From positions 1 to 64,000 of the IMG/VR virus record IMGVR_UViG_3300048583_000034: 64,000 nt of DNA; one strand, given 5' to 3'. The translations under genes were made by a program, and so were the position numbers. The notes below the pieces were generated by a model. That model saw only the letters and a list, made by a program, of their open reading frames with translations, was not told the origin of the DNA and did not search any database. Of the stretch, positions 17,983 through 56,126 are shown one piece after another (position 1 is the stretch's first letter; every line of letters begins with the position of its first letter). The stretch is from a virus.

Positions 17983-18657
17983 ATGGCACTGAAACTTAAG
18001 TTAGCATATCTGGACCAGAATATTTTTGATGGTATGGAAATTGTTGAAGAGCAGAATAAACTAGGTTCTGGGAACTCTCTGTATATTCAAGGACCATATA
18101 CAGGAGTTGCTAAGAATAAAAACAAAAGAGTTTATCCAAAGGAAGAATTGGATCGTGATATCAATCGCTATATCAACGAGATGGTAAACACCAATCGTGC
18201 TATGGGAGAATTGAACCATAGTCAAACCGCTGAAGTTAATCCAGAACGTGCTTGTCACATGGTCACACAACTCCATGAAGATAACGGGACTTGGTATGGT
18301 AAATCAAAAATTTTATCCGGCGAAGGACTTCCAATTGGAAATCTTGTTAAAGGATTAATCAATCAAGGAGTTTCTTTAGGTGTATCCACAAGAAGCTTAG
18401 GAACATTGGAAGAGTCCACAGACCATAATATTGTAAGGAATCTACATATTGTCGCATGGGACATGGTTGCTGACCCTTCTTTCCCAACAGCTTTCGTAAA
18501 TGGTATATTAGAATCCAGAGAATTCGTTATTGGTGATTCTGGAAAATATGAAGAATCTTACTCTAAATTAGACAATGGCTTATCTTCTTTACCAAAAAAA
18601 GATGTTGAAAGATATCTTCGTGACCAAGTTATACGTTTCATAAACTCTCTTAACTAA
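17983..18657 (+). CDS. 21: Prohead core protease (gp21)
   Basis: This 224-residue serine protease has the herpesvirus/T4-type catalytic elements: GELNHSQTA with the active-site His, and GVSLGVSTRSLG with the Ser. The start GPYTGVAKNKNKRVYP is typical of gp21. It cleaves scaffold and capsid proteins during head maturation, and in T4 also removes capsid-targeting leaders from internal proteins. It sits in the gp21-core-gp22-gp23 order, as in T4. Confidence 0.94.
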   Translation: MALKLKLAYLDQNIFDGMEIVEEQNKLGSGNSLYIQGPYTGVAKNKNKRVYPKEELDRDINRYINEMVNTNRAMGELNHSQTAEVNPERACHMVTQLHEDNGTWYGKSKILSGEGLPIGNLVKGLINQGVSLGVSTRSLGTLEESTDHNIVRNLHIVAWDMVADPSFPTAFVNGILESREFVIGDSGKYEESYSKLDNGLSSLPKKDVERYLRDQVIRFINSLN

Positions 18658-20004: not shown

Positions 20005-21465
20005 ATGAACGAAATTCCACAAACTGGTAACGAAAGTAAAATTCAAGGTCTTGTCCGTAAATGGGCAAAAGTTCTGGACTATAGCAGCGACTCGATCCCT
20101 GCTATCCAAAACGAGCACGTTTACAAAACGACTGCGATGCTCTTAGAAAACCAAGAAAAATGGTGTATCGAAGAAGCTGGCAACAACTCTGCTGGTATTT
20201 TTGGCGCAACTGGTAATGCTCAAGCTACGCAAGGCATTGTCAAGGGTGACACTTATGCTCCCGGAGATTCCCGTCTTCCTAAGATTCTCATTCCTATGAT
20301 TCGTCGTACTTTCCCTGAACTTATCTCCAACGAGATTTGCGGTGTTCAACCTATGGGTGGCCCAGTTGGTCTTGCTTTCGCTCTGCGTTATGCATATCAA
20401 TCAACCTTCCTTAATGAAACCGACCACGTTGGACAAGTAGTAGCTGGAACTGGTGGAACTAATCCCGGACTTGGATATACTGGCAATGCTGGTCTTCCCG
20501 GTGCAGGTGAATTAGGCTATCAACTTCTGGACACTCGCTTTACAGGTGTTTCTTCTGCTGCCCTATCAGGTCACGCAGAATGGGCATTTGCACATCAAGA
20601 TTCAGGTGTTGCACAATTACTCGAAAACTACGAGAACACAGGTCGTATTCCACAAATCGAAATGAAGTTTGAAAAGACTTCTGTTGAAGCTGGAACACGT
20701 AGACTTGCTACTCGTTGGTCTATCGAATTGGAACAAGACATCAAAAATATGCAAGGTATCGACATCGATGGCGAGCTTACTAATGCGATGTCCTATGAAA
20801 TCCAAGCCGAAATTGACCGTGAAGTAGTTATGCGTATGATCCAATCCGCGTTTAACGCTGGATATGGTGCTGGTATCTCCATCTGGAGTCCAGTAAGTGC
20901 TGACGGTCGTTGGACTGCTGAACGTAATATCACATTCTATCAACGTCTTATCATCGAGGCTGGTCGTATGGCTGCTCGTAACCGTAGAGGTGCCGCTAAC
21001 TTTGTTATCGCAACTCCTCGCGTTTGCTCTATCCTTGAAATGCTTCCTGACTTCAAAGTATTTGAAATCAATGGAACTGTCTCAACCGCTGGAGTTGGTA
21101 TCGCTAAGGTAGGAACTGTTGGTTCACGTTTCACTGTTTATCGTGACACTCGTACTGAAGTTCAGAACACAACTTATTATCCAAATAGCAACAGCTATAC
21201 TCCTACAAGAGTAAACCCTGTTGAATATGCTCTGATGGGTTACAAAGGTTCTGAATACTATGACACTGGTATTATCTACTGCCCTTATATCCCGATCATG
21301 GTGCAACGTGCCATCGATCCTGTTAACTTCACACCTCGCGTTGGTCTTATGACCCGTTACGGTATCGTTAACAACATCTTTGGAGCAGATCTCTACTACC
21401 ACATCATTGTTGTCAAGGGACTTGGTGTTGCCTTTACCCCCGGCACGGTTAGCACATATTTATAA
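20005..21465 (+). CDS. 23: Major capsid protein (gp23)
   Basis: This 486-residue protein has the T4 gp23 features: the early NSAGIFGATG region, IRRTFPELISNEICGVQPM, the RRLATRWSIELEQDI block and QAEIDREVVMRM. It forms the hexameric capsid shell with help from the gp31-like cochaperonin. It is followed by a strong terminator at 21512. Codon use is richer in GC-ending codons than its neighbours, as expected for the most expressed gene. Confidence 0.97.
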   Translation: MNEIPQTGNESKIQGLVRKWAKVLDYSSDSIPAIQNEHVYKTTAMLLENQEKWCIEEAGNNSAGIFGATGNAQATQGIVKGDTYAPGDSRLPKILIPMIRRTFPELISNEICGVQPMGGPVGLAFALRYAYQSTFLNETDHVGQVVAGTGGTNPGLGYTGNAGLPGAGELGYQLLDTRFTGVSSAALSGHAEWAFAHQDSGVAQLLENYENTGRIPQIEMKFEKTSVEAGTRRLATRWSIELEQDIKNMQGIDIDGELTNAMSYEIQAEIDREVVMRMIQSAFNAGYGAGISIWSPVSADGRWTAERNITFYQRLIIEAGRMAARNRRGAANFVIATPRVCSILEMLPDFKVFEINGTVSTAGVGIAKVGTVGSRFTVYRDTRTEVQNTTYYPNSNSYTPTRVNPVEYALMGYKGSEYYDTGIIYCPYIPIMVQRAIDPVNFTPRVGLMTRYGIVNNIFGADLYYHIIVVKGLGVAFTPGTVSTYL

Positions 21466-34520: not shown

Positions 34521-34709
34521 ATGACAATTTCATTCGACCCTATTTGGATACCGTCAATCATATCAATATTCATGGTGATATATGCGATGGCTTCTTGGGT
34601 AAATTATGACGGGTGGTTCTCTGGAGTGTTTGAAGTTATCTTCTTCCTTATAGGACTTCCTATAGTTTGGTTAGGATACTTCACAATTTTATACTTCACA
34701 ACAAAATGA
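34521..34709 (+). CDS. Small membrane protein
   Basis: This 62-residue protein has two predicted transmembrane helices (IISIFMVIYAMASWV and VIFFLIGLPIVWLGYFTILY) separated by a short NYDGWFSG loop. It is the only gene directly served by the promoter upstream and lies within the tRNA cluster. It could be a membrane-acting early protein. Confidence 0.6.
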   Translation: MTISFDPIWIPSIISIFMVIYAMASWVNYDGWFSGVFEVIFFLIGLPIVWLGYFTILYFTTK

Positions 34710-34937
34710 GAGTTTTAGTAAAACAAACAGATATCGGAGTAGCGGGGTATTCATGGAAAATACCCCACTATATACGCTTCAAAACTTACGCAATATTTAA
34801 AGGTTTATGGTGATGGTGTCGAATTCGATATAATCATGAGGTCTGCAAATGGGTTTCGTTTCCCCATGGATTGTGATTTGGATATCGAATTTAAAATAAC
34901 CGCAACACCAAAAATACCAAATCCAACAATAAAATAA
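34707..34937 (+). pseudogene. ORF broken by a +1 frameshift
   Basis: It starts by ATGA overlap with the membrane protein and reads 35 codons to a TGA at 34812. The +1 frame then continues coding-like sequence (VYGDGVEFDIIMRSANGFRF...) to a TAA at 34935. The shift would lie near TTTAAAGG at about 34797. It carries RSANGxRF, also found at the end of the 13839 fibre protein. Either a decayed gene or a programmed shift. Confidence 0.4.
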
Positions 34938-35082
34938 ATTTCCCTTCCCACATGTCGGGTGGTGGGCTTGAAGTATGATAATAATTATCTGTAAATCTTC
35001 TATCGCTTGGGCATATTGAAAGCAATCCGAAACGGCTCACTCTCTAGCTAAAAGGTTCTGATCAAACTGATTGAGAGAAATT
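34938..35082. other. Non-coding inter-tRNA segment
   Basis: No ORF or clear RNA fold; nothing further recognised. Confidence 0.3.
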
Positions 35083-35156
35083 GCGTCATAAGTGTTACGG
35101 TAGCACATCTGACTTCCACTCAGAGAGCGTGGTTTCGACTACCACATGACGCACCA
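35083..35156 (+). tRNA. tRNA-Gly(UCC), first copy
   Basis: Acceptor GCGTCAT/ATGACGC, anticodon arm TCTGA-CTTCCAC-TCAGA, encoded CCA. Confidence 0.9.
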
Positions 35157-35333
35157 GTAAATCGTAGGCTAGTGAATAGTCATCGAAACAGATAAGATAG
35201 GATTCTCAGTCATCACTGGCTTTCTCCTCGCAGGGAACTTTAAATGATACTCGTCTCCGTTCTCAAAAGCTCACTGTCGCAGTAGGTTCGCAACCCTGTA
35301 TGTTAGCGGTTAATTTTGAGCGGTTTACTAAAC
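35157..35333. other. Unassigned structured inter-tRNA segment
   Basis: GGCTAGTGA (35167) can pair with TCACTGGCT (35215). CCG-CTCAAAA near 35257 pairs with TTTTGAG-CGG near 35316, enclosing a T-loop-like GGTTCGCAACC. No known RNA class recognised. Confidence 0.35.
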
Positions 35334-35404
35334 GCCTTGTTCGTATAACGGTATTACAGTGGATTTGTAATCCTCTAACGTGAGTTCGACTCTCACACTC
35401 GGCT
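35334..35404 (+). tRNA. tRNA-Thr(UGU)
   Basis: Loop TTTGTAA, T arm GTGAG/CTCAC. The acceptor GCCTTGT/ACTCGGC has two mismatches in the middle, so processing or charging may be weak. Confidence 0.72.
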
Positions 35405-35425
35405 CTGTAAGTGATTGATAATAAA

Positions 35426-35501
35426 TGGGGTGTAGCTCAGTGGTTAGAGCAATCGGTTGATAACCGATAGGCCGACAGTTCAAATCTGTCCACCCCAACC
35501 A
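35426..35501 (+). tRNA. tRNA-Ile(GAU)
   Basis: Anticodon arm ATCGG-TTGATAA-CCGAT; acceptor TGGGGTG/CACCCCA; T arm GACAG/CTGTC; encoded CCA. Confidence 0.92.
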
Positions 35502-35503
35502 AA

Positions 35504-35577
35504 GGAACATTAGCATAGTGGCTTAATGCACCTGCCTGTCGAGCAGGATATCGTCGGTTCGAATCCGTCATGTTTCG
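35504..35577 (+). tRNA. tRNA-Asp(GUC)
   Basis: Anticodon arm CCTGC-CTGTCGA-GCAGG; acceptor GGAACAT/ATGTTTC; G73; no CCA. Confidence 0.9.
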
Positions 35578-35582
35578 CATAA

Positions 35583-35640
35583 TGGGGCTATAGTTTAGCG
35601 GTAAAACTCTGGATCTGCTTGCAAAGTTAGTCTGCCCCAC
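35583..35640 (+). pseudogene. Truncated tRNA-like gene
   Basis: A TGGGGCT/TGCCCCA acceptor and a GTTT-AGCGGTA-AAAC D arm are present, but there is no T arm (no GGTTCGA) and no clean anticodon stem. It ends exactly at the late promoter of the inserted HNH gene, as if part of the tRNA had been lost there. Confidence 0.5.
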
Positions 35641-35646
35641 TAAATA
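35641..35646 (+). promoter_or_regulatory. Late promoter box of an HNH gene
   Basis: TAAATA lies 5 nt before ATG 35652; an earlier ATG (35646) overlaps the box and is disfavoured. Confidence 0.7.
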
Positions 35647-35651
35647 TGTAT

Positions 35652-36191
35652 ATGGAAGATTTATTCTTTATACAGAACGGTGTCAGAAGACGAGCAAAAG
35701 AAATTGAATGTGGTCATTGTAAAAATAAATTTCTTACTAGATTAAACGCAGATACAAAATACTGTAGCAGAACTTGTAATGGTGCTAGTATCAAAACTTC
35801 GATAGAGTTGGAATGCTACGAATGCAAAAAGAAATTTGAACGAAATAAATATAAAGCCGAAAATGCCAGTAAACATAACTTTCATTTCTGTTCTCGTTTA
35901 TGTAAAGAAAAAGCACAGAGTTTAAAAGGTTCATGTATAGAAATAAGACCGCCCCATTATGGTGAAGGAAACGGGAAAAATTCATACAGAAAGTTGGCAT
36001 TTAAATCTTTTGAGCATAAATGTAATAGGTGTGGATATAATAAAATTGTTGAAGTTTTACAGGTCCATCACAAAGATAAAAATAGAGAACATAATGTAGT
36101 AGAAAATTTAGAGATATTATGTCCGACTTGTCACATGGAATTCCATTTCATTGATTCGAGTGGGCTATGGGGGATGGGATTGCTGGGGTGA
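35652..36191 (+). CDS. HNH homing endonuclease
   Basis: This 179-residue protein has three zinc knuckles: CGHCKNKF with CSRTC, CYECKKKF with CSRLC, and the HNH core with CNRCGY, QVHHKDKNREHN and LCPTCH. The last 23 nt and the TGA stop lie inside the tRNA-Ala gene. It separates a truncated tRNA-like gene from tRNA-Ala. Confidence 0.87.
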   Translation: MEDLFFIQNGVRRRAKEIECGHCKNKFLTRLNADTKYCSRTCNGASIKTSIELECYECKKKFERNKYKAENASKHNFHFCSRLCKEKAQSLKGSCIEIRPPHYGEGNGKNSYRKLAFKSFEHKCNRCGYNKIVEVLQVHHKDKNREHNVVENLEILCPTCHMEFHFIDSSGLWGMGLLG

Positions 36192-36245
36192 ACACCTCAT
36201 TTGCAATGAGGCATCAGATGGGTTCGATTCCCATATCCTCCACCA
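36169..36245 (+). tRNA. tRNA-Ala(UGC)
   Basis: Anticodon arm CCTCA-TTTGCAA-TGAGG; acceptor GGGGGAT/ATCCTCC; encoded CCA. Its 5' end overlaps the HNH gene. Confidence 0.92.
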
Positions 36246-36246
36246 T

Positions 36247-36482
36247 ATGAAAAGAAGAGGATTTATAGGAAGTTTAATTGGTTGTATCGGTATTCCGTTT
36301 CTTCCGAAGGAAACAAAAAGCCAGTCTATGAAATGGAGATACCATCAATTAATATTGATGGTAGACCACGTAAATTGAAGGCTAATTGGGGAGTAGATAT
36401 CGAGAAAGACTTGATGTTGATGATGAGTATAGATATACAACAAGAGATAGATCGAGAGATAATTAATAAAATGGCTGGGTAG
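36247..36482 (+). pseudogene. gp23-like fragment with Tat-like leader, split by a -1 frameshift
   Basis: ATG 36247 opens a frame with MKRRGFIGSLIGCIGIPFLP, a twin-arginine-like leader, ending at TGA 36376. Entering the -1 frame near the A5 run at about 36316, the sequence continues PVYEMEIPSINIDG-RPRKLKANWGVDIEKD ... QQEIDREIINKM to a TAG at 36480. The second half aligns with the RRLATRW ... EIQAEIDREVVMRM region of the capsid protein at 20005. The TAG lies at bases 8-10 of the next tRNA. Confidence 0.5.
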
Positions 36483-36546
36483 ACCAACGGTAGGAGTCAA
36501 GGGTCTTAGAAGCCCTCCAGTGTCGGTTCGAATCCGACCCCAGCTA
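36473..36546 (+). tRNA. tRNA with anticodon UAG (Leu codon CUA), short variable arm
   Basis: Anticodon arm AGGGT-CTTAGAA-GCCCT; acceptor GGCTGGG/CCCAGCT; T arm GTCGG/CCGAC; variable loop only 5 nt (CCAGT), unlike normal class II leucine tRNAs. No CCA. Confidence 0.82.
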
Positions 36547-36551
36547 CATAA

Positions 36552-36623
36552 CCACTCTAAGCTTTAATGGTGAAGCGACTGTCTGAAGAACAGTAAAAGT
36601 CGATTCGAGCACGACAGAGTGGA
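36552..36623 (+). tRNA. tRNA-Phe(GAA)
   Basis: Acceptor CCACTCT/AGAGTGG, anticodon arm ACTGT-CTGAAGA-ACAGT; no CCA. Confidence 0.9.
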
Positions 36624-36627
36624 CATC

Positions 36628-36807
36628 ATGACAGCAACATTCGCAGTTAATTTTTGTGATAACGAAGGATATGTTATCGACAATGGTGTGTTCGTATTTT
36701 GTAACGATGATATTATATTAAAATTTGTGAATAGTGATGAATTGAAAGCCTTTGGAGAAAGATGTATTAAAATGTCAGAAGAAATTTACGAAACATACAA
36801 ATATTAA
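36628..36807 (+). CDS. Small hypothetical protein
   Basis: This 59-residue acidic protein (TATFAVNFCDNEGYVIDNGV...) starts 5 nt after tRNA-Phe. No family recognised. A GTG at 36619 inside the tRNA is a less likely start. Confidence 0.5.
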   Translation: MTATFAVNFCDNEGYVIDNGVFVFCNDDIILKFVNSDELKAFGERCIKMSEEIYETYKY

Positions 36808-36810
36808 ACT

Positions 36811-37074
36811 ATGAAACTAGGAGATTTTAAAAAGGTTCCAATATCAGAAGCCATAAAAATACCAAGTGTTGGTGGTCATTATGACTTAGTAAAAGATATG
36901 TGGTGGGGCGTGACAGATGACGAATGTATTCTGTATTACAGAGGATATTCTAGGCAATGTAACAGAAATAAAAGTATCACAGAGTCAATCATAAATTCAG
37001 ACACCCACCCAGCAACCAAGGTAATTTTTCTGGAGAGTGTTTGGGAGAAACATGATTGTAAAGATTACGAATAA
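36811..37074 (+). CDS. Hypothetical protein
   Basis: This 87-residue protein contains WWGVTDDECILYYRGYSRQ. Its TAA is directly followed by tRNA-Arg. It is co-oriented with the preceding small gene, 3 nt away. No family recognised. Confidence 0.5.
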   Translation: MKLGDFKKVPISEAIKIPSVGGHYDLVKDMWWGVTDDECILYYRGYSRQCNRNKSITESIINSDTHPATKVIFLESVWEKHDCKDYE

Positions 37075-37147
37075 GGATCGTTAGTAGACTGGATTATAAC
37101 GTCTCTTTACGAAGGAGAAAAAAATGGTTCGATTCCATTACGGTCCA
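37075..37147 (+). tRNA. tRNA-Arg(ACG)
   Basis: Anticodon arm TCTCT-TTACGAA-GGAGA; acceptor GGATCGT/ACGGTCC. A34 needs deamination to inosine to read all CGN. Confidence 0.85.
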
Positions 37148-37167
37148 CAATTGGGGATTGATGTAAT

Positions 37168-37242
37168 TGATGCGTAGTGTAACGGTTTAGCACCAGTGGT
37201 TTTGAACCACTTAGAGTATGGGTTCGATTCCCACCGCATCTA
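37168..37242 (+). tRNA. tRNA-Gln(UUG)
   Basis: Anticodon arm AGTGG-TTTTGAA-CCACT; acceptor TGATGCG/CGCATCT with T1:T72 unpaired. Confidence 0.87.
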
Positions 37243-37244
37243 CT

Positions 37245-37976
37245 TTACCCCCAATACCCTCTGGGTGGTTTGGTCAACCCTAATTTCTTAATATGTTTCT
37301 CAACAGCTTTATCGCTAACCCCTAATTCCTTCGCTATCTTAGTTGTTGGTTTACTCCACAATAATGATTTTAATTCCTCTGAGGAGGGCCAAATTATCTT
37401 TTCTCTTTTGGGGCCACGGCATTTGTTGCAAGACGTTGATAGTTTATGTTTTTTCTCACCACAATCACATAAAGTAATTTTCTTATTTTTTTTGCCAGCA
37501 TATGAAGAAGTTTGTGTATGACAATTTGGACAAAGAAAACACAAGTTTTCTAAACGGTTATCGTTCGATATTCCATTTATATGTTCCAGTTGTAATGATA
37601 GTTGTTCGCCTAACCAAGATCCATCGTTGGAACATTTAACACATTTATAATCTACCAATTCAAATTTTACTAAATAAAGTTTAAGATTATATCTATTTCT
37701 TTCAGAGTTTTCAACCAACCAATTTTTAATAAAGTCTTCTTTTGACAATTCTCTCGTAAGATTCGATGCGTCTATTCTGGAAAGAAAATGAGAAGTTTCT
37801 AGATTCAGCTCAGATACTCTCTTTTTAACAATATGGAAGTTGTTTCCTTTGTTCTGTAAACCAAAATAATTCAAAACATCTTTCATGGATTTACTAGTTG
37901 CAACTAATTCGATAAATTTTTCATCTTCTAATTTCCAAATTTTTGATCTCTTCGCTCTTGATTTTATGGTAAGCAT
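37245..37976 (-). CDS. HNH homing endonuclease with C-terminal HTH
   Basis: This 243-residue protein has the HNH core (CVKCSNDGSW, LQLEHINGISNDN, FLCPNCHTQ), a small zinc knuckle (CDCGEKK ... CNKC) and a C-terminal helix-turn-helix (TTKIAKELGVSDKAVEKH). It is antisense to the tRNA cluster, with its own minus-strand late promoter, and starts 3 nt from tRNA-Gln at its 3' end. Confidence 0.88.
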   Translation of the reverse strand: MLTIKSRAKRSKIWKLEDEKFIELVATSKSMKDVLNYFGLQNKGNNFHIVKKRVSELNLETSHFLSRIDASNLTRELSKEDFIKNWLVENSERNRYNLKLYLVKFELVDYKCVKCSNDGSWLGEQLSLQLEHINGISNDNRLENLCFLCPNCHTQTSSYAGKKNKKITLCDCGEKKHKLSTSCNKCRGPKREKIIWPSSEELKSLLWSKPTTKIAKELGVSDKAVEKHIKKLGLTKPPRGYWG

Positions 37977-37981
37977 ATGTA

Positions 37982-37987
37982 TATTTA
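37982..37987 (-). promoter_or_regulatory. Late promoter box of an HNH gene
   Basis: TAAATA on the minus strand, 5 nt before ATG 37976. Confidence 0.7.
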
Positions 37988-38003
37988 GTTCATCAGTGCT
38001 AAC

Positions 38004-38029
38004 TTGTCAATAAAACACTAGAACATAAT
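38004..38029 (+). promoter_or_regulatory. AAACACTAG promoter
   Basis: TAAAACACTAG-AA-CATAAT ahead of tRNA-Ser(UGA); TTGTCA lies 14 nt before the -10. Confidence 0.65.
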
Positions 38030-38037
38030 CAAATAAA

Positions 38038-38130
38038 GGGTGTGTGGTCGAGTCCGGTTTATGGCACCTCACTTGAAATGAGGCGATGGGGTTAGTATCC
38101 TGTCCGCGAGTTCAAATCTTGCCGCACCCG
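38038..38130 (+). tRNA. tRNA-Ser(UGA)
   Basis: Class II with long variable arm; anticodon arm CCTCA-CTTGAAA-TGAGG; acceptor GGGTGTG/CGCACCC; G73. Confidence 0.92.
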
Positions 38131-38134
38131 CATT

Positions 38135-38350
38135 ATGCTTAACGATAATAATAAGATATATGGTGATCCAAGAAGTGAGGAATCTATGAAACTTATTTCT
38201 AGTTTTCTCATAAAACATCACACAGATAAAGATGAAAATTCTTTGTGGGTGAGATTTAATCAACTGATGGGCAAAGCACACGATCAAGAATTGGATCATA
38301 GGGCAACATGGAACTCATATCTAAGAGTCGTAGAAGAAAAAATGAAATAA
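38135..38350 (+). CDS. Hypothetical protein
   Basis: This 71-residue charged protein contains HHTDKDENSLWVRFNQLMG and ELDHRATWNSYLRVVEEK. It is probably helical. It lies between tRNA-Ser and tRNA-Val. No family recognised. Confidence 0.55.
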   Translation: MLNDNNKIYGDPRSEESMKLISSFLIKHHTDKDENSLWVRFNQLMGKAHDQELDHRATWNSYLRVVEEKMK

Positions 38351-38351
38351 A

Positions 38352-38423
38352 GGGGAATTGTTGTAATTGGTAGCAAAACTGGGTTACATCCAGCTAGTAA
38401 GGGTTCAAGTCCTTTATTCCTCA
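38352..38423 (+). tRNA. tRNA-Val(UAC)
   Basis: Loop GTTACAT between CTGG and CCAG; acceptor GGGGAAT/ATTCCTC; T arm AAGGG/CCTTT. Confidence 0.83.
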
Positions 38424-38424
38424 C

Positions 38425-38540
38425 AAACTAATAACTAGAGAGATCGACTAATCCGGTCGAGAAAATTAACGGAAAAGCTCTGCGGACGATGGTGAACAGT
38501 TGGAATCCTGACGAAAATTTAATGCCCGCATTATTAGTTT
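38425..38540 (+). ncRNA. Possible structured RNA between tRNAs
   Basis: A perfect 10-bp closing stem AAACTAATAA (38425-38434) and TTATTAGTTT (38531-38540) encloses about 96 nt with an inner hairpin TCGAC/GTCGA near 38448. No ORF, no tRNA fold. The class is unknown. Confidence 0.4.
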
Positions 38541-38542
38541 AT

Positions 38543-38632
38543 GGAAGTTTGACAGAGTGGTAATGTGCCTACTTGGAAAGTAGAGGCCAACTTTAATAGG
38601 TTGCGGGAGTTCAAATCTCTCAACTTCCGCCA
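38543..38632 (+). tRNA. tRNA-Ser(GGA)
   Basis: Class II; loop TTGGAAA; acceptor GGAAGTT/AACTTCC; G73 and encoded CCA. Confidence 0.92.
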
Positions 38633-38636
38633 CATT

Positions 38637-38721
38637 GGAAGATTGGCAGAGTGGTAATGCGTCTGGTTGCTAACCAGTAGCCTACCGAAAGGTAGCGGGA
38701 GTTCGATCCTCTCATCTTCCG
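38637..38721 (+). tRNA. tRNA-Ser(GCU)
   Basis: Class II; anticodon arm TCTGG-TTGCTAA-CCAGT; acceptor GGAAGAT/ATCTTCC; G73. Confidence 0.92.
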
Positions 38722-38750
38722 CATTGTTTTGTGATATGTTTAAAAATAAA

Positions 38751-38822
38751 AGGTCCATCGTATAATGGTTAATACAGAGGCTTCCAACCCCTCTGATCTG
38801 CGTTCGATTCGTAGTGGACCTG
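38751..38822 (+). tRNA. tRNA-Gly(UCC), second copy
   Basis: ATCGTATAATGG D arm and loop CTTCCAA as in bacterial tRNA-Gly(UCC); acceptor AGGTCCA/TGGACCT; T arm CTGCG/CGTAG. No CCA. It differs clearly in sequence from the copy at 35083. Confidence 0.87.
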
Positions 38823-39074
38823 CTGTAAGATTATTAAGGATGTTGGCCTAAAGGTAGCAATCATATAATGAGTAACGAATATACAACAAGAAATTAACCT
38901 AGGTGTAGGGAGAAATCGGTAGAGTATATCGGGGAAACTGGCTAGAGTTTGATATGTTTGGTCCCCTTAGCCAAAGGGACTTAATGATTATATAGATACA
39001 CTGGAAAATAATCAGATGCATATCAAGACCCGCAGAGTTTTTGGTGTAATAACACGCTTTCTAATCTTATTAAT
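38823..39074. other. Unassigned inter-tRNA segment
   Basis: No ORF. It contains a GTAGGGAGAAATCGGTAGA stretch like a class II tRNA D arm, then GGGGA/TCCCC and GTCCC/GGGAC pairings, but no T arm. TAAGATT near 38824 could pair with AATCTTA near 39063. Possibly a decayed or interrupted tRNA, or another structured RNA. Confidence 0.35.
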
Positions 39075-39145
39075 GTCTCGTTGGTCAAATGGTAAGGCGG
39101 CGGATTGCAAATTCGCAGTTGGGGGTTCGATTCCCTCACGGGACT
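39075..39145 (+). tRNA. tRNA-Cys(GCA)
   Basis: Anticodon arm GCGGA-TTGCAAA-TTCGC; acceptor GTCTCGT/ACGGGAC; T73 as usual for Cys. Confidence 0.9.
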
Positions 39146-39146
39146 C

Positions 39147-50099: not shown

Positions 50100-52472
50100 A
50101 TGAAGTTTAATCAAATAGTCGAAAGGCTAAATCCTTTCCTACTACATGAAAGGTATTATAATTATACCTTCCCAGAAAAAAAGTCATTACAGATGTATGA
50201 CTTCTATGTTTTGGATTATTTGAGATATCTGGTGGAGAATATGTCTCCAAAAAATTTTCGAGACCTTCCTATGGATTTGGAAGATAGTGTTAAGGACTCG
50301 GTGAATAAATTGTTCCCTGCCCTGAGACAGGAATTGTTGAACGCAGTATTCTATGCCGTGTGTGCTGAGATGCGACATTCAGATGGTTCCAATGGTGGAA
50401 ATAAATCACATAGGCAATTGTTCACTGGTGGAACAAAAGATGCCAAGATTTATAATGCATATTTGAAATATATGCTATACCATAAGGCCAATGATAACGA
50501 CAAGAAAGAGTTGGTTGATATCCATGGTGCGGAGAAGCCTAGAACTAGAGCACAGATCCCTTCGACCGAAGTTGATAATGATGAATTGAGAAATACTTCT
50601 TATAAGGCAGCTAGATATGCCATTAAGAAAACTGGTTTATCTGAGAAAGATTTCATGGAGATGTGTCTAAAGATCTTCACTGAAGGTGGATGGTCTCAAT
50701 CCTATGGTGGAAACGCTTGGGGATCAATTGCAAAGGGGTGGCTTATGCTTAATGATGCTGACCAAATCAATCCACCACCAGCAAGAAAAGGTTCAGAGGA
50801 TCGTGCCAAGAAGCCTATGAGTGTGGCTATTGACCACGTTTATGATTTACAACACAATACTGATACTGTCTTCAATAAACTCAAGAGTTATTATGGAGAT
50901 AGTGGATATGCTTGGATTGGTAACGTCCTAGACCACAAAGCAAATACTCATAGTTATTTTGATTTACTTAGCCATTGCTCTAGCATGGTTAAGAATATGG
51001 CACAGCCTATATTATATAATCGTCTAGGTTCTACTTGGGAGAATGATATCAAAAATACCTCCCCAGAAGATGATATAGACTTAGGGCAATACAATAAAAA
51101 GGCGATGTATTATATCGAAGAACCGATCAATGGTAAATTTGTTATATGCACACACCCATTGGCATCTGCTGGCTTCACAAGAGATAAAATTTATAAAGTC
51201 CTCAACTATAAGGATGGTTCTCTTCTTCTTAGAAATGATGAGAAAAAGATTAAAAAAGTTTCAACTGGATATTTCAATCTTTTAGTTAAAAAAGGCGATG
51301 AGGTGGAACAAATTGCTCTCGAAGAGCCTACACCTCAAAATACGAGTAGTAATATTCCTAACACAGATGTTCACAAATCTAAGTATTATAGCGATGTTGT
51401 GACTGGGGACAAGTTGAGAGTTGTCGATGCAGATGGATCGGGAATATTTGGAGATGGTGATATTATCACATATATTAAAGACACATATGATACCCACGAT
51501 GATAAAAAAATGATTGATATCATCGTAGATAAAAACGGTAAGAAATCTTCTGGGTGGAGGAGTAAAAGATTCGAACCTATTAAAAAAACAATAGAAAAAA
51601 CTCATAAATTCAAAAAAGGAGACATGGCTAAGTGTATCGATGACTCTGGTTGGGCTGAAGGTGTCCTAACCAAAGGAAAATTATATGAAGTTTTACATTA
51701 TTCCATAGATGGAGAATCTGAGGAATTTAATACGATTGGATTTGTAGACGACAATGGTGACAAAATTTCTGCATATGTCAAAAGATTTGAACCACCAAAG
51801 GAAAACACGGGATCATTTGAAGAAACCTCGGAATCAGGAACCTTTAAAGTGGGTGACAAGGTAAAATTAAAATATGGTGAATCATACCCCGGCTTAACAC
51901 CGGGTAAAGTATATACTATTACCACCCTACCTGTTTCTAATGATCCAAAAAAATTAACTGCGGTTATTGATAACGATGATGATGTTAATGTTATATTTAT
52001 TTCTAGGTTAGAACCAGTAGATGTCTCTCAGAAAAATAAACCGGGATTTTTCGAGATTGGTTCCAAAGTTAAATTAAAGAGCAACGAACATTACCCAAAC
52101 GTTACAAGTGGTAAAGTTTATACGGTCGTAAGACCTAAGTTCATCTCAAGTGATAAATATATTATAACTTATATAACTGGAGATAATGGGGGAGTTATAG
52201 GGTTGTATAACACTAGGCTTCAACAAGTTAGGGATAGACCATCACAAATTGACGCCATAGCCAAGACAGAAGAAATGACCCAACCAAAACTTAAAATTGG
52301 TGATCGTGTGTCATATACTGGAGCTGATGGCAAAACACATACCGGAAAAATTTCACAGGCTAACTCATGGAGTGCCTTGGTTAATTGGGATGATGGGGTG
52401 GTAACACATTCAGTGCCTTTAAATACTCTAACCAAAATAGACTCTTCCAAATTTAGAGACATAAAGATATGA
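50100..52472 (+). CDS. Large protein with unknown HNT-motif domain and SH3-like repeats
   Basis: This is a 790-residue protein. Residues 1-18 (KFNQIVERLNPFLLHE) look like a capsid-targeting leader. Residues about 190-330 hold a domain with GGNAWGSIAKGWLML and VYDLQHNTDTVFNKL that also occurs in the 55362 gene. After residue 345 at least five short beta-barrel repeats follow, each with a (K/F)xxGDxVK ... GKVYTV pattern, similar to SH3/KOW-like modules. A late protein, possibly packaged in the head. Confidence 0.6.
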   Translation: MKFNQIVERLNPFLLHERYYNYTFPEKKSLQMYDFYVLDYLRYLVENMSPKNFRDLPMDLEDSVKDSVNKLFPALRQELLNAVFYAVCAEMRHSDGSNGGNKSHRQLFTGGTKDAKIYNAYLKYMLYHKANDNDKKELVDIHGAEKPRTRAQIPSTEVDNDELRNTSYKAARYAIKKTGLSEKDFMEMCLKIFTEGGWSQSYGGNAWGSIAKGWLMLNDADQINPPPARKGSEDRAKKPMSVAIDHVYDLQHNTDTVFNKLKSYYGDSGYAWIGNVLDHKANTHSYFDLLSHCSSMVKNMAQPILYNRLGSTWENDIKNTSPEDDIDLGQYNKKAMYYIEEPINGKFVICTHPLASAGFTRDKIYKVLNYKDGSLLLRNDEKKIKKVSTGYFNLLVKKGDEVEQIALEEPTPQNTSSNIPNTDVHKSKYYSDVVTGDKLRVVDADGSGIFGDGDIITYIKDTYDTHDDKKMIDIIVDKNGKKSSGWRSKRFEPIKKTIEKTHKFKKGDMAKCIDDSGWAEGVLTKGKLYEVLHYSIDGESEEFNTIGFVDDNGDKISAYVKRFEPPKENTGSFEETSESGTFKVGDKVKLKYGESYPGLTPGKVYTITTLPVSNDPKKLTAVIDNDDDVNVIFISRLEPVDVSQKNKPGFFEIGSKVKLKSNEHYPNVTSGKVYTVVRPKFISSDKYIITYITGDNGGVIGLYNTRLQQVRDRPSQIDAIAKTEEMTQPKLKIGDRVSYTGADGKTHTGKISQANSWSALVNWDDGVVTHSVPLNTLTKIDSSKFRDIKI

Positions 52473-52567: not shown

Positions 52568-52714
52568 ATGAATTATGATAACATAAAAATTCTCCCCGTT
52601 CCAAAATTAGAAGGGGAGAATTTAAATAGATGGCTCAAAAGAGAATCAGCAAGATATGGAATTGAACATCTTAAAGATGGTAGGTTTTACCTTAAGAGAT
52701 TCTTCAACATCTGA
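52568..52714 (+). CDS. Small ORF overlapping antisense gene end
   Basis: This 48-residue basic ORF (NYDNIKILPVPKLEGENLNR...) starts 1 nt after the preceding TAA and overlaps the 3' end of the CCA-adding enzyme by 28 nt. Its DNA contains an 11-bp hairpin (52587-52623), so it may instead be a terminator region. Confidence 0.35.
   Translation: MNYDNIKILPVPKLEGENLNRWLKRESARYGIEHLKDGRFYLKRFFNI
52587..52623. terminator. Hairpin between convergent genes
   Basis: AAATTCTCCCC and GGGGAGAATTT, 11-bp stem, 15-nt loop, followed by AAATAG rather than a T run. It may stop or stabilise transcripts of the 50100 gene. Confidence 0.45.
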
Positions 52715-54210
52715 GAATAAGCTTCTTGGAACGGTCCAGAAAGAATCAACCCAGCAATCTCTTTCATCCTTTGCTCATCTGGATCTTCTCCAGCGTTCAA
52801 CGTCTCTAGAACATATTCGTTTAGAGCGTCAGTTATTGAGCGAAAGTGTGTCTTATCCTTTTGCAAGACCGGAAACCAAGTCATAAGTTTAGCCCCATCG
52901 AAATATTGCTTTAACTTAAGTCTCGTTTCGTCTCTGGTTCCACCAATACGTTGAACCTTCTCTTCTGCTCTAGCAATCTTAGCGTTGAATTCATCAGCGT
53001 TAAAATGTGCTGGTCCTCTGGAAGCTTCGTCGCAATATCCAACAGCTTTCACAACTTCCCATGCTGGGTCGTTAATAAGAGCAGTCAGAGTCTTGATGTT
53101 AAGTTTATCCAGATTATGAATAAGCATATGCTTCTCCACAGCAAATAGAATATGTTTCTTATCTTGGGGAGAGAGTTCCGAGAACTTTAACGTCCTGAAG
53201 ATCCTATCCACGATAGGAACACCTGCTCCATCATGACCGTGATAGTTCGAGAAGCCATTATCCTTACGTCCTCTCGTAGTCGCTTTACCAAAGTCATGGA
53301 AAAGAACGGCAAGGTTTATAACGGGATCAGTATATGGGGACACTTTCAAACATTCATAGATATGTCCCAGCACTTGAGCATCACCTTCTGGATGATGTTG
53401 GGGATCATGATCGAATCCTTCCATAGCAGTAAACTCGGGAAGAATGTCGTGTAGAATGCCCGTCTCTTGTAACTTGTGTAGAAAGTTCGCCAGAGTCTTA
53501 CCAGACTTCGCAGACTTATAAAACTCTTTGGAAATGCTTTCCTTGGAAATCGCCTCTGGATTAGATAACAAACTCTTTAGTTCGATAGCAGCTTGTTTGG
53601 TTCCTTCTTCAATATCGAAGCCCATCTTAGCAGCAAATCTAAAGACACGTAGAATTCTAGTGGCATCTTCCTGAAATCTCTTTTTTGGATCACCCACAGC
53701 ACGCACCAGAGAGTTTTTCAAGTCCTCCAGACCACCCTGAAAGTCCACGATCTGTCCAGACGCATCCAGACCAAAGGAATTGATCGTAAGGTCTCTACGC
53801 GCAGTGTCAGCTTCAAAGGAATCCGTCTCAGTGGAGACGTTGTTCTGTCTCCCGATGTCTCCCGAATCCGTTCTGAATTTCGCAAGGTCATACCAATAGT
53901 TTCCCCACTTAATTGTAAACACAGGTTGTAAATCATCCTTAGAGATATTTCTCATCTCATAAAGTTCTGATAACTTCTCCAGAGGAATATTGGTGGCCAT
54001 ATCCACATCATCAATTTCATTCCCCATAAGAAGATCTCTAGGAACCCCACCAACAATATAAATATCACCCTTTAGTTTTGACTTGATATTCTTCATTAAA
54101 TCAAGAGCAACTCTCAATTCTTCAGAAGATTCCACAGCTTTTATCCACTTGGCATCAAAGTCATCACCATACTTCTCTAGAAGCATATAGCGCAGTTTGT
54201 CGAATTTCAT
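52687..54210 (-). CDS. cca: CCA-adding enzyme / tRNA nucleotidyltransferase
   Basis: This 507-residue class II nucleotidyltransferase has YIVGGVPRDLLMGNEIDDVDM with the catalytic DxD, RRDLTINSFGLD, GDPKKRFQEDATRILRVFRF and an HD domain (LFHDFGKATTRG, HGHDGAG). It would add or repair the CCA ends of tRNAs. Many phage tRNA genes here lack encoded CCA, giving it clear substrates. The N-terminus KFDKLRYMLLE resembles a capsid-targeting leader. Confidence 0.92.
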   Translation of the reverse strand: MKFDKLRYMLLEKYGDDFDAKWIKAVESSEELRVALDLMKNIKSKLKGDIYIVGGVPRDLLMGNEIDDVDMATNIPLEKLSELYEMRNISKDDLQPVFTIKWGNYWYDLAKFRTDSGDIGRQNNVSTETDSFEADTARRDLTINSFGLDASGQIVDFQGGLEDLKNSLVRAVGDPKKRFQEDATRILRVFRFAAKMGFDIEEGTKQAAIELKSLLSNPEAISKESISKEFYKSAKSGKTLANFLHKLQETGILHDILPEFTAMEGFDHDPQHHPEGDAQVLGHIYECLKVSPYTDPVINLAVLFHDFGKATTRGRKDNGFSNYHGHDGAGVPIVDRIFRTLKFSELSPQDKKHILFAVEKHMLIHNLDKLNIKTLTALINDPAWEVVKAVGYCDEASRGPAHFNADEFNAKIARAEEKVQRIGGTRDETRLKLKQYFDGAKLMTWFPVLQKDKTHFRSITDALNEYVLETLNAGEDPDEQRMKEIAGLILSGPFQEAYSQMLKNLLR

Positions 54211-54215
54211 ATTTG

Positions 54216-54242
54216 TATTTAAACGATAACCTAGTGTTTAAA
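54216..54242 (-). promoter_or_regulatory. Tandem early and late promoters of cca
   Basis: On the minus strand TAAACACTAG-GT-TATCGT is followed by TAAATA, 5 nt before ATG 54210. The TAA of the upstream kinase-like gene is part of the motif. Confidence 0.7.
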
Positions 54243-55104
54243 AGGGTAAATCGTCCTCAGTATCGGGTTCGGTTGGGACTGGTGCCTTCGGTGTTGGCTT
54301 CTTCAGTCTCTTCTTTTTAGGTAACTCACCACCTCTTAAAGTTTTCGGTTGGACATAATCTGGGCTTTCATCATCAAAATAACCTGCTTCCTGTCTGACA
54401 TATTCATCATGATCTCTATAAGCATTAAACTCATAACCTTCCCATACAGGATCTATAAGAACATACTCACCATTAGCACGTTTCATGACATTACCAGCGT
54501 GCCAATCAGGAACACCGCCCCAATTTTCAGACTTCATTACCTTTTCTAGCATATCTTGTCCAACTAAAACATTGTATATTTCTCTGGGGAGGGCATCAAC
54601 TTCTGATTTAAGATCTTCCATAACTGCCTTGGAATCGTTCTCATAAAATCTTATAAGTTGATCTGGATTGTTTTTATAAAAAGTGTATCTATAAACAACC
54701 CCTCTGCCTGCATCTATATCATTAAATTCTCCCTCTTCCAAGGGTTCCAGTTTTTCTATACGAGACACATACATCTCCTTATCATATTCTTCCCTAGCAT
54801 AAAAAGGGACTATTCTTTTAGGTGTCCCATAAAATTTGGGGAAAGGAGGATAAGGATTCTTATAAGCAAAACGAACAAATCTCAAATATGGATCATCCTT
54901 TGTAAATGTCTTGATAACATATGGCCATTTTGGATGAGAATATACGGTCCCATACTTACCAGCACCGATCTGCTTACCACCAGAAGCTTCAAACTCTTTC
55001 ATGAGATCCCACCACCTCTTATCCCTATGTTCCGGGTTCAAAAGAAAGTCCGACACCGTATCAAAGGATTCGTTGATGTGGAAGAAGGAAGTAAATGAGA
55101 TCAT
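54238..55104 (-). CDS. Protein-kinase-like protein with an SSB-like C-terminal tail
   Basis: This is a 288-residue protein. IGAGKYGTVYSHPKWPYVIKTF matches the glycine-rich loop and the ATP-binding lysine. PDWHAGNVMKRANGEYVLIDP matches a catalytic loop (D-x-x-x-x-N) and a metal-binding DP in place of DFG. The C-terminal 35 residues are basic and proline-rich, ending TEDDLPF, like the DDIPF end by which bacterial SSB recruits its partners. A late box lies 7 nt upstream. Start ISFTSFFHINES also resembles a capsid-targeting leader. Kinase activity is not proven. Confidence 0.68.
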   Translation of the reverse strand: MISFTSFFHINESFDTVSDFLLNPEHRDKRWWDLMKEFEASGGKQIGAGKYGTVYSHPKWPYVIKTFTKDDPYLRFVRFAYKNPYPPFPKFYGTPKRIVPFYAREEYDKEMYVSRIEKLEPLEEGEFNDIDAGRGVVYRYTFYKNNPDQLIRFYENDSKAVMEDLKSEVDALPREIYNVLVGQDMLEKVMKSENWGGVPDWHAGNVMKRANGEYVLIDPVWEGYEFNAYRDHDEYVRQEAGYFDDESPDYVQPKTLRGGELPKKKRLKKPTPKAPVPTEPDTEDDLPF

Positions 55105-55111
55105 GCCCTAA

Positions 55112-55117
55112 TATTTA
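55112..55117 (-). promoter_or_regulatory. Late promoter box of the kinase-like gene
   Basis: TAAATA on the minus strand, 7 nt before ATG 55104. Confidence 0.55.
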
Positions 55118-55122
55118 AGGAT

Positions 55123-55361: not shown

Positions 55362-56126
55362 ATGCTGTCTTTTAATCAATTCTACGAAAAATTTGAACGC
55401 GGAGAACTTCTACCAATTAATAGAAGACGCAAGATTTTAATTGAAGCACTATATGTTTATCCTTCCTCTGGAGACAAAGCTATCATGGATGTATATGCAT
55501 TGTATGCTCTCTGGTGGGAACTCGGTGGTGGCAAGTCATCTTATGGATACGCAGAAACTTCCATAAGAAACGAGAGAGTAAGAGAAAAAGTAGACAGAGC
55601 ATTCGAAGAAGCCTTGACCGTAATCTCAAACAAACTCCTACAGGAAACAAAAGAAGCCATCGCAGACGAAGCAGAGAACATATTTGACGAACACTTAATA
55701 CCCTCAAAAGATGTAGTCCTCTGGTTTAAACAAAACAACCTTTTACCAAAATTAAAGAAAGCCTACAATAATGGAGCAGGTGGCGTTTGGTTTGATACGT
55801 TCTCCTATGACGAAACTATACAGATCTTAGCAGCACCGTTCTGGGAAGAACATGCAAACTTATATGGTGGTAAGAAATGGTCCTCCATAACGGAAGTCAC
55901 CAAACAACTCGATAACGCCATTCGAAGAGAAAACGTTCAGAGTCTATTAAGCACCTTTGACAAGTTCATGGATCTGGAACATAACACAGGATCTCTCTAT
56001 TCCAAATTGAACCAAATGAAAGTCTCCAAAGAAACTCTAGACCTAAGAGCAGGTTTCCAATCAGTAAAGGATTTCCTCCCCTACGTCTCCGACCAAGTTA
56101 AAAAATTCATAGGATTAATGCGATGA
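55362..56126 (+). CDS. Paralogue of the N-terminal domain of the 50100 gene
   Basis: This 254-residue protein has a leader-like start (LSFNQFYEKFERGE), a helical middle, then LYGGKKWSSITEVTKQLDNA and FMDLEHNTGSLYSKLNQM, matching GGNAWGSI ... YDLQHNTDTVFNKL of the large protein. It lacks the SH3-like repeats. A late promoter is present. Function unknown. Confidence 0.6.
   Translation: MLSFNQFYEKFERGELLPINRRRKILIEALYVYPSSGDKAIMDVYALYALWWELGGGKSSYGYAETSIRNERVREKVDRAFEEALTVISNKLLQETKEAIADEAENIFDEHLIPSKDVVLWFKQNNLLPKLKKAYNNGAGGVWFDTFSYDETIQILAAPFWEEHANLYGGKKWSSITEVTKQLDNAIRRENVQSLLSTFDKFMDLEHNTGSLYSKLNQMKVSKETLDLRAGFQSVKDFLPYVSDQVKKFIGLMR

What the first reader, a model, noticed from the sequence alone, without database searches (positions are those of the whole stretch)
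54238..55104. Kinase-like protein ending in an SSB-type partner-recruiting tail
The protein combines a glycine-rich loop, a Lys, an HAGN-type catalytic loop and a DP metal site with a disordered Pro/Lys stretch ending EDDLPF. The last residues copy the DDIPF end of bacterial SSB. It could dock on host repair and replication proteins that bind SSB, and phosphorylate or sequester them.
Basis: partly seen in the sequence, partly recalled or inferred. Interest (0 to 1): 0.75.

Follow-up and report, generated by a model that had tools for sequence, protein, structure and literature searches.

The report
Phage head kinase with SSB-like tail
A T4-like phage encodes a small protein kinase that appears to be made late, packed into the phage head and injected into the next host, and that ends in a short conserved tag resembling the one bacterial single-strand DNA-binding protein uses to recruit its repair and replication partners.

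Summary
In detail: window 54238-55104 (minus strand) encodes a 288-aa kinase-like protein ending TEDDLPF. It matches a T7 gp0.7-type kinase profile (E 2.8e-11), and its predicted structure finds only protein kinases and phage gp0.7-type kinases. Deeper searches found two further lineages with the same tip (DFDEVPF, DHDEVPF). The three cores are about 51% identical and their linkers about 19%, so the linker drifted while the SSB-type tip stayed. In each of the three phages the kinase is the only ORF with such an ending. All tail-less copies form one clade. Best reading: a gp0.7-type kinase packaged in the head, injected, and steered by an SSB-Ct-like tip to host proteins that bind SSB. Kinase fold and tail conservation are shown; packaging is strongly suggested; docking and targets are inferred. 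New variant of a known kind.

The parts
54238..55104 (-). gp0.7-type kinase gene, 288 aa
   Evidence: ORF; phrog_15752 E 2.8e-11; kinase fold
55112..55118 (-). T4-type late promoter motif TTAAATA, 7 nt before the ATG
   Evidence: same motif upstream of relatives' kinases and of gp21/gp22
55069..55104 (-). Residues 1-12 MISFTSFFHINE: disordered leader with capsid-targeting layout (F4, F7, I-N-E)
   Evidence: pLDDT <50 for 1-12; conserved in relatives; T4 IPII/IPIII start MKTYQEFIAE; L/I-X-E and residues 4/7 rule (PMC9026906)
54439..55068 (-). Residues 13-222: kinase core
   Evidence: model, Foldseek and VIA hits
54949..54966 (-). Glycine-rich loop G47-A-G-K-Y-G52
   Evidence: sequence; G47 and G49 invariant
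54910..54912 (-). ATP-binding Lys65 (VIK)
   Evidence: invariant
54490..54507 (-). Catalytic loop D200-W-H-A-G-N205
   Evidence: D200, H202, N205 invariant
54448..54453 (-). Metal site D218-P219 (DFG equivalent)
   Evidence: invariant
54256..54327 (-). Residues 260-283: disordered basic/Pro linker (ELPKKKRLKKPTPKAPVPTEPDTE)
   Evidence: pLDDT <50; start GG-x-[LM]-P-x-KKR shared with L040/L041, remainder diverged
54241..54255 (-). Residues 284-288 DDLPF: SSB-Ct-like tip
   Evidence: L040 DFDEVPF, L041-43 DHDEVPF; only such ORF end in each of three phages
52687..54210 (-). Late neighbour: CCA-adding/poly(A)-polymerase-like protein with HD domain, leader MKFDKLRYMLLE
   Evidence: PF01743 4.4e-23, phrog_2244 4.2e-60; late motif 5 nt before ATG
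50100..52472 (+). Late neighbour, 790 aa, leader MKFNQIVERLNPFLLHE
   Evidence: late motif 5 nt before ATG
55362..56126 (+). Late neighbour, 254 aa from its probable start MLSFNQFYEKFE
   Evidence: late motif 5 nt before this ATG; weak match to the 790-aa protein, E 0.001-0.003
17983..18657 (+). T4 gp21-type prohead (head maturation) protease
   Evidence: phrog_207 2e-45
20005..21465 (+). T4 gp23-type major capsid protein
   Evidence: tblastn to T4-like cyanophage gp23, 33%, E about 1e-50

Best explanation
This is a T7 gp0.7-type protein kinase that a T4-like phage uses as a virion-borne effector. It is transcribed from a late promoter, drawn into the prohead by a T4-type capsid-targeting leader, trimmed by the gp21-type protease after I-N-E (residue 12), packaged and injected with the DNA. 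In the new host the kinase phosphorylates host proteins. The flexible basic linker and the SSB-Ct-like tip (D-[DE]-[LV]-P-F) dock it on host proteins that normally bind the end of SSB (RecO/RecQ/PriA/ExoI/DnaG/Pol III chi type), concentrating the kinase on, or blocking, repair and replication factors that would meet the incoming DNA. Shown: kinase family and fold, conservation of the tip over linker drift, late promoter motif, leader layout, head-operon position in one relative. Inferred: packaging, injection, catalysis, docking and the identity of targets.
For: Kinase: phrog_15752 E 2.8e-11, a profile T7 gp0.7 itself hits at 1.7e-46; fold hits are protein kinases in PDB (best E 1.6e-4, VIA Z 8.7) and phage gp0.7-type kinases in BFVD (E from 7e-10); catalytic residues invariant. 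Tail: tips DDLPF/DEVPF/DEVPF in three deep lineages with core about 51%, linkers 10/52 identical; tail-less copies form one clade, support 90/98; only such ORF end in each of the three records, 321, 288 and 178 ORFs; different codons and stops in the tips; DDDLPF is the natural SSB end in S. aureus, and IDISDDDLPF is usual in Gram-positives (PMC5531588). No bacterial-type SSB found in these phage records. Packaging: leader layout F4/F7/I-N-E as in T4 IPII/IPIII; leader conserved in relatives; same T4 spacing in Rhizobium phage RHph_I1_18 kinase; such leaders enriched at starts in G002 (11 seen, 1.6 expected) and G001 (4, 0.4); late promoters; L041 kinase lies between portal PF07230 and protease PF03420.
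Against: No tail in the commoner clade, so the tail is not needed for the family's core role. The leader regex is not enriched in the window's own genome (2 seen, 2.5 expected), was shaped after seeing examples, and L023/L054 leaders lack a clean L/I-x-E. No virion proteome, binding or kinase data exist. Hosts are unknown, so the tip cannot be matched to the host's SSB. Model quality is moderate (pLDDT 73).
Confidence: 0.5

Rival explanations
1. Injected gp0.7-type kinase whose acidic tip has nothing to do with SSB: it is a second packaging signal that binds the phage scaffold or portal.
For: Leader and head context point to the prohead; neighbouring late proteins in relatives (L002, L006, L016, L044) also keep conserved N- and C-termini around a diverged middle; T4 Alt is processed at both ends (PMC9026906).
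Against: Tip matches SSB-Ct residue for residue including the final Pro-Phe; no other ORF in the three phages has it, though several would need the same signal; tail-less clade keeps the leader without it.
Confidence: 0.15
2. Ordinary late or internal phage kinase with a neutral acidic end: the tip reflects common ancestry, and acts at most by folding onto the basic linker.
For: Three sequences only; linker is basic (KKR) and tip acidic in all three.
Against: Linkers retain about 19% identity while Pro-Phe is kept in all and D-[DE]-[LV] is kept in kind; composition chance 8e-6.
Confidence: 0.2
3. The kinase is not packaged; it is made late and acts in the producing cell on phage or host proteins.
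For: Late promoter alone; leader regex not enriched in this genome.
Against: Conserved disordered leader with L/I-x-E in most relatives, head-operon location in L041, Rhizobium relative with the T4 spacing.
Confidence: 0.2

Closest known systems
T7 gp0.7 / JSS1_004 protein kinase (phrog_15752, phrog_2828)
   Same: Kinase core, catalytic residues, phage gene; C-terminal module added to a small kinase; JSS1_004 phosphorylates defence proteins such as DndFGH (PMC12345140).
   Different: gp0.7 is an early protein with a large basic shutoff domain; here a late gene with leader and short SSB-like tail, in a T4-like phage; the paper describes the kinase as almost exclusive to Autographiviridae.
T4 internal head proteins IPI-IPIII and Alt
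   Same: N-terminal capsid-targeting layout with L/I-x-E site, late expression, T4-type head genes.
   Different: Alt is an ADP-ribosyltransferase and IPI an anti-restriction protein; no kinase or SSB-type tail.
Bacterial SSB C-terminal tip (SSB-Ct)
   Same: Disordered linker ending acidic-acidic-[ILV]-Pro-Phe at the very C-terminus.
   Different: No OB fold or ssDNA-binding domain; the tip is on a kinase and the linker is basic.

Membership tests
T7 gp0.7-type phage kinase | Profile match over the kinase core | tested here: met
   phrog_15752 E 2.8e-11, residues 30-220; T7 gp0.7 hits the same profile at 1.7e-46
T7 gp0.7-type phage kinase | Gly-rich loop, Lys, catalytic Asp/Asn, metal Asp | tested here: met
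T7 gp0.7-type phage kinase | C-terminal basic host-shutoff domain (needed to be a full gp0.7 orthologue) | tested here: not met
   phrog_2828 (full-length gp0.7) matched only at residues 200-220; the C-terminus is a short linker and tip. So a relative of the kinase core, not a gp0.7 orthologue
T7 gp0.7-type phage kinase | Kinase activity | not testable with these tools
   needs assay
T4-type CTS-bearing internal head protein | N-terminal leader with L/I-x-E site and aromatic positions 4 and 7 | tested here: met
   MISFTSFFHINE against T4 MKTYQEFIAE; site not clean in L023/L054
T4-type CTS-bearing internal head protein | Late promoter | tested here: met
   TTAAATA 7 nt before ATG
T4-type CTS-bearing internal head protein | Presence in virion and cleavage | not testable with these tools
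   needs virion mass spectrometry
SSB-Ct-bearing protein | C-terminal acidic-[ILV]-P-F tip on a disordered linker | tested here: met
SSB-Ct-bearing protein | Binding of SSB-partner proteins through the tip | not testable with these tools
   needs binding assay
SSB (PF00436) | OB-fold SSB domain | tested here: not met
   no SSB hit in Pfam; fold hits are kinases; PF00436 absent from the record

The most novel reading that the evidence does not exclude
T4-like phages inject a kinase that wears the SSB recruitment tag, so that the host's SSB-partner network is phosphorylated or blocked within moments of DNA entry: a virion-delivered molecular mimic of the bacterial SSB hub.
Probability: 0.4. Interest if true: 0.8.

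Novelty: new variant of a known kind. Interest (0 to 1): 0.6.

Why it matters
gp0.7-type kinases are described as early T7-group proteins that disarm defence systems. A version in T4-like phages that is packaged and carries a conserved SSB-type tip would be a new delivery route and a new targeting principle for phage kinases, and would make the SSB partner network a direct phage target. Both claims are easy to test with a peptide, a purified protein and virion mass spectrometry.

Tried and rejected
Pfam, NCBIfam, PADLOC and PDB-sequence searches with the window protein gave nothing useful; phage-collection tblastn with the window protein gave no match. I first took the tail as refuted because eleven relatives lack it; overturned by L040/L041. 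L044/L045 hits turned out to be a broken 40-codon kinase remnant, not a shared leader domain. Idea that the kinase is repeatedly fused to or next to Alt-like ADP-ribosyltransferases (L054 C-terminus, L041 178-aa protein, RHph gene 3): only short motif resemblance; Pfam and PHROGs silent and the model of the L054 domain is too poor (pLDDT 47), so not claimed. Mimicry of a phage SSB: PF00436 is absent from all eight records; tail-less relatives carry gp32-type proteins. Beta-clamp motif (QxxLxF type) considered and rejected: Pro at the position needing Leu, no Gln. The collection-wide base rate of such tails could not be scanned (pattern too degenerate), so it rests on composition and the ORFs of three records. 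The genome-contig scan found no cellular relative. Literature searches found no phage kinase with an SSB-type tail and no head-packaged phage kinase; the library is only open-licence PMC.

Full report
What is there. The ORF at 54238-55104 is on the minus strand, 288 codons, ATG to TAA. The window is the first 64 kb of a 99,180-bp virus record, G000. Its major capsid protein is a distant T4 gp23 relative (33% identity to cyanophage gp23) and it carries a gp21-type head maturation protease (phrog_207 2e-45), so it is a T4-like phage.

The kinase. The only family hit of weight is phrog_15752, E 2.8e-11 over residues 30-220. T7 gp0.7 hits the same profile at 1.7e-46, which ties the window protein to the gp0.7 kinase group; the match to phrog_2828, the profile that covers full-length gp0.7, is confined to residues 200-220. 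Relatives in IMG/VR keep K65, D200, N205 and D218. A model built from ten family members (pLDDT 73, pTM 0.68) is confident over most of residues 13 to 222, and both ends are disordered. Foldseek finds only protein kinases near the top in PDB (best E 1.6e-4) and phage gp0.7-type kinases in the viral library (E from 7e-10); VIA Z reaches 8.7 with PKR. These scores are moderate, but they agree with the sequence evidence.

The tail. Eleven close-to-identical relatives end at RGGRTKLTSR or similar, without the tail; L014-L016 end RGGRTS and L023/L054 carry an unrelated extra domain. Deeper searching found L040 (ends PDFDEVPF) and L041-L043 (ends EDHDEVPF). All three tail kinases share GG-x-[LM]-P-x-KKR at the start of the linker; after that the linkers are 10 of 52 aligned positions identical, against about 51% in the core, while the tip is D-[DE]-[LV]-P-F in all. 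Codons and stop codons of the tips differ. In a tree the tail-less sequences form one clade (90/98) and the three tail kinases are separate deep branches whose order is unresolved, so one ancestral tail with one loss is the simplest reading. In each of the three phage records the kinase is the only ORF with such an ending, out of 321, 288 and 178 ORFs of at least 60 aa; the composition expectation is 8e-6 per protein. DDDLPF is the natural end of S. aureus SsbA and IDISDDDLPF is usual in Gram-positive SSBs; the last Pro-Phe goes into a hydrophobic pocket of partners such as RecO and ExoI (PMC5531588; PMC7145534). None of eight phage records encodes a bacterial-type SSB, though most of these records may be fragments.

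The other end. Residues 1-12, MISFTSFFHINE, are disordered in the model and end in I-N-E. T4 gp21 cuts after L/I-X-E, and in the T4 capsid-targeting sequence residues 4 and 7 matter for targeting (PMC9026906); T4 IPII and IPIII begin MKTYQEFIAE. The kinase has Phe at 4 and 7. Relatives keep the layout (MISFSEFYLIKE, MISFAKHYLIKE, MQGFAEFFITE, MIYSFKKWLNNKDVLTE), and the Rhizobium T4-like phage kinase (read as MKSFSEHIAES; its annotated start codon is TTG) has the exact T4 spacing. L023/L054 do not fit cleanly. Leaders of this type are strongly enriched at gene starts in G002 (11 seen, 1.6 expected) and G001 (4, 0.4), though not in G000 (2, 2.5); the pattern was written after seeing examples, so this is supporting evidence only. 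A T4-late-type motif TTAAATA lies 7 nt before the ATG; the same motif stands before gp21 and gp22 in the window and before the kinase in relatives. In L041 the kinase gene starts at the end of the portal gene gp20 (PF07230 8e-74) and is followed, after two intervening ORFs, by the gp21 protease (PF03420 1e-29).

Mechanism. I think it most likely that the kinase is packaged, trimmed and injected, then acts on host proteins at once, with the SSB-like tip choosing where. JSS1_004, a gp0.7 relative, phosphorylates defence proteins, and both its kinase and its C-terminal domain are needed in vivo (PMC12345140); T7 gp0.7 phosphorylates RNA polymerase (PMC5569994). In that light the C-terminus of these kinases looks like an exchangeable targeting module: basic shutoff domain in T7, SSB-type tip here, another domain in L023/L054. 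Kinase fold and tip conservation are shown; packaging is well supported by inference; docking and targets are hypotheses.

Verdict. The packaging signals are an addition that makes the idea more coherent. Confidence in the full chain is about 0.5, because no experiment supports docking or packaging and only three tail sequences are known.

Noticed in passing
G000 as a whole; e.g. window 17971, 19053, 50088, 54222, 55350: Late-promoter motif [CT]TAAATA lies exactly 5 nt before the ATG in 22 of 28 late genes, only 1 of 28 has a Shine-Dalgarno-like sequence, and early promoter-like CTAG-N-TANANT motifs lie 6 nt before ATG in 12 of about 17; transcripts would start at or next to the start codon (leaderless)..
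   Followed up: partly
window 31513-39146: Array of 24 predicted tRNA genes including one with anticodon CTA (called tRNA-Pyl by ARAGORN), while TAG ends only 2 of 70 ORFs of 150 aa or more; possible amber suppression or recoding. A CCA-adding enzyme gene (52687-54210) sits beside the kinase..
   Followed up: partly
L002:4318-5967, L006:4126-5538, L016:3933-5951, L044:1771-3465 (minus): Large late proteins near the tail-less kinases keep a conserved N-terminal 18 residues (L/I-x-E leader) and C-terminal 43 residues around a mostly diverged middle, as expected of head proteins targeted at both ends..
   Followed up: partly
L054:2513-4120; L044:3619-5355: Kinase fused to a C-terminal domain that also ends a separate 578-aa late protein in L044 (65% identity); RGDDG motif suggests ADP-ribosyltransferase but families and model gave no support..
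   Followed up: partly
L044/L045:3487-3612: Kinase gene reduced to about 40 codons in two contigs: leader and start of the core remain, then a stop..
   Followed up: no
L041:2437-4971: Portal protein gene contains an intein (PF14890, E 5e-10)..
   Followed up: no
window 50100-52472: 790-aa late protein with several repeated SH3-like segments (weak DUF6501 and phrog_4927 matches) and a leader MKFNQIVERLNPFLLHE; the 254-aa protein at 55362 shares a weakly similar stretch..
   Followed up: no
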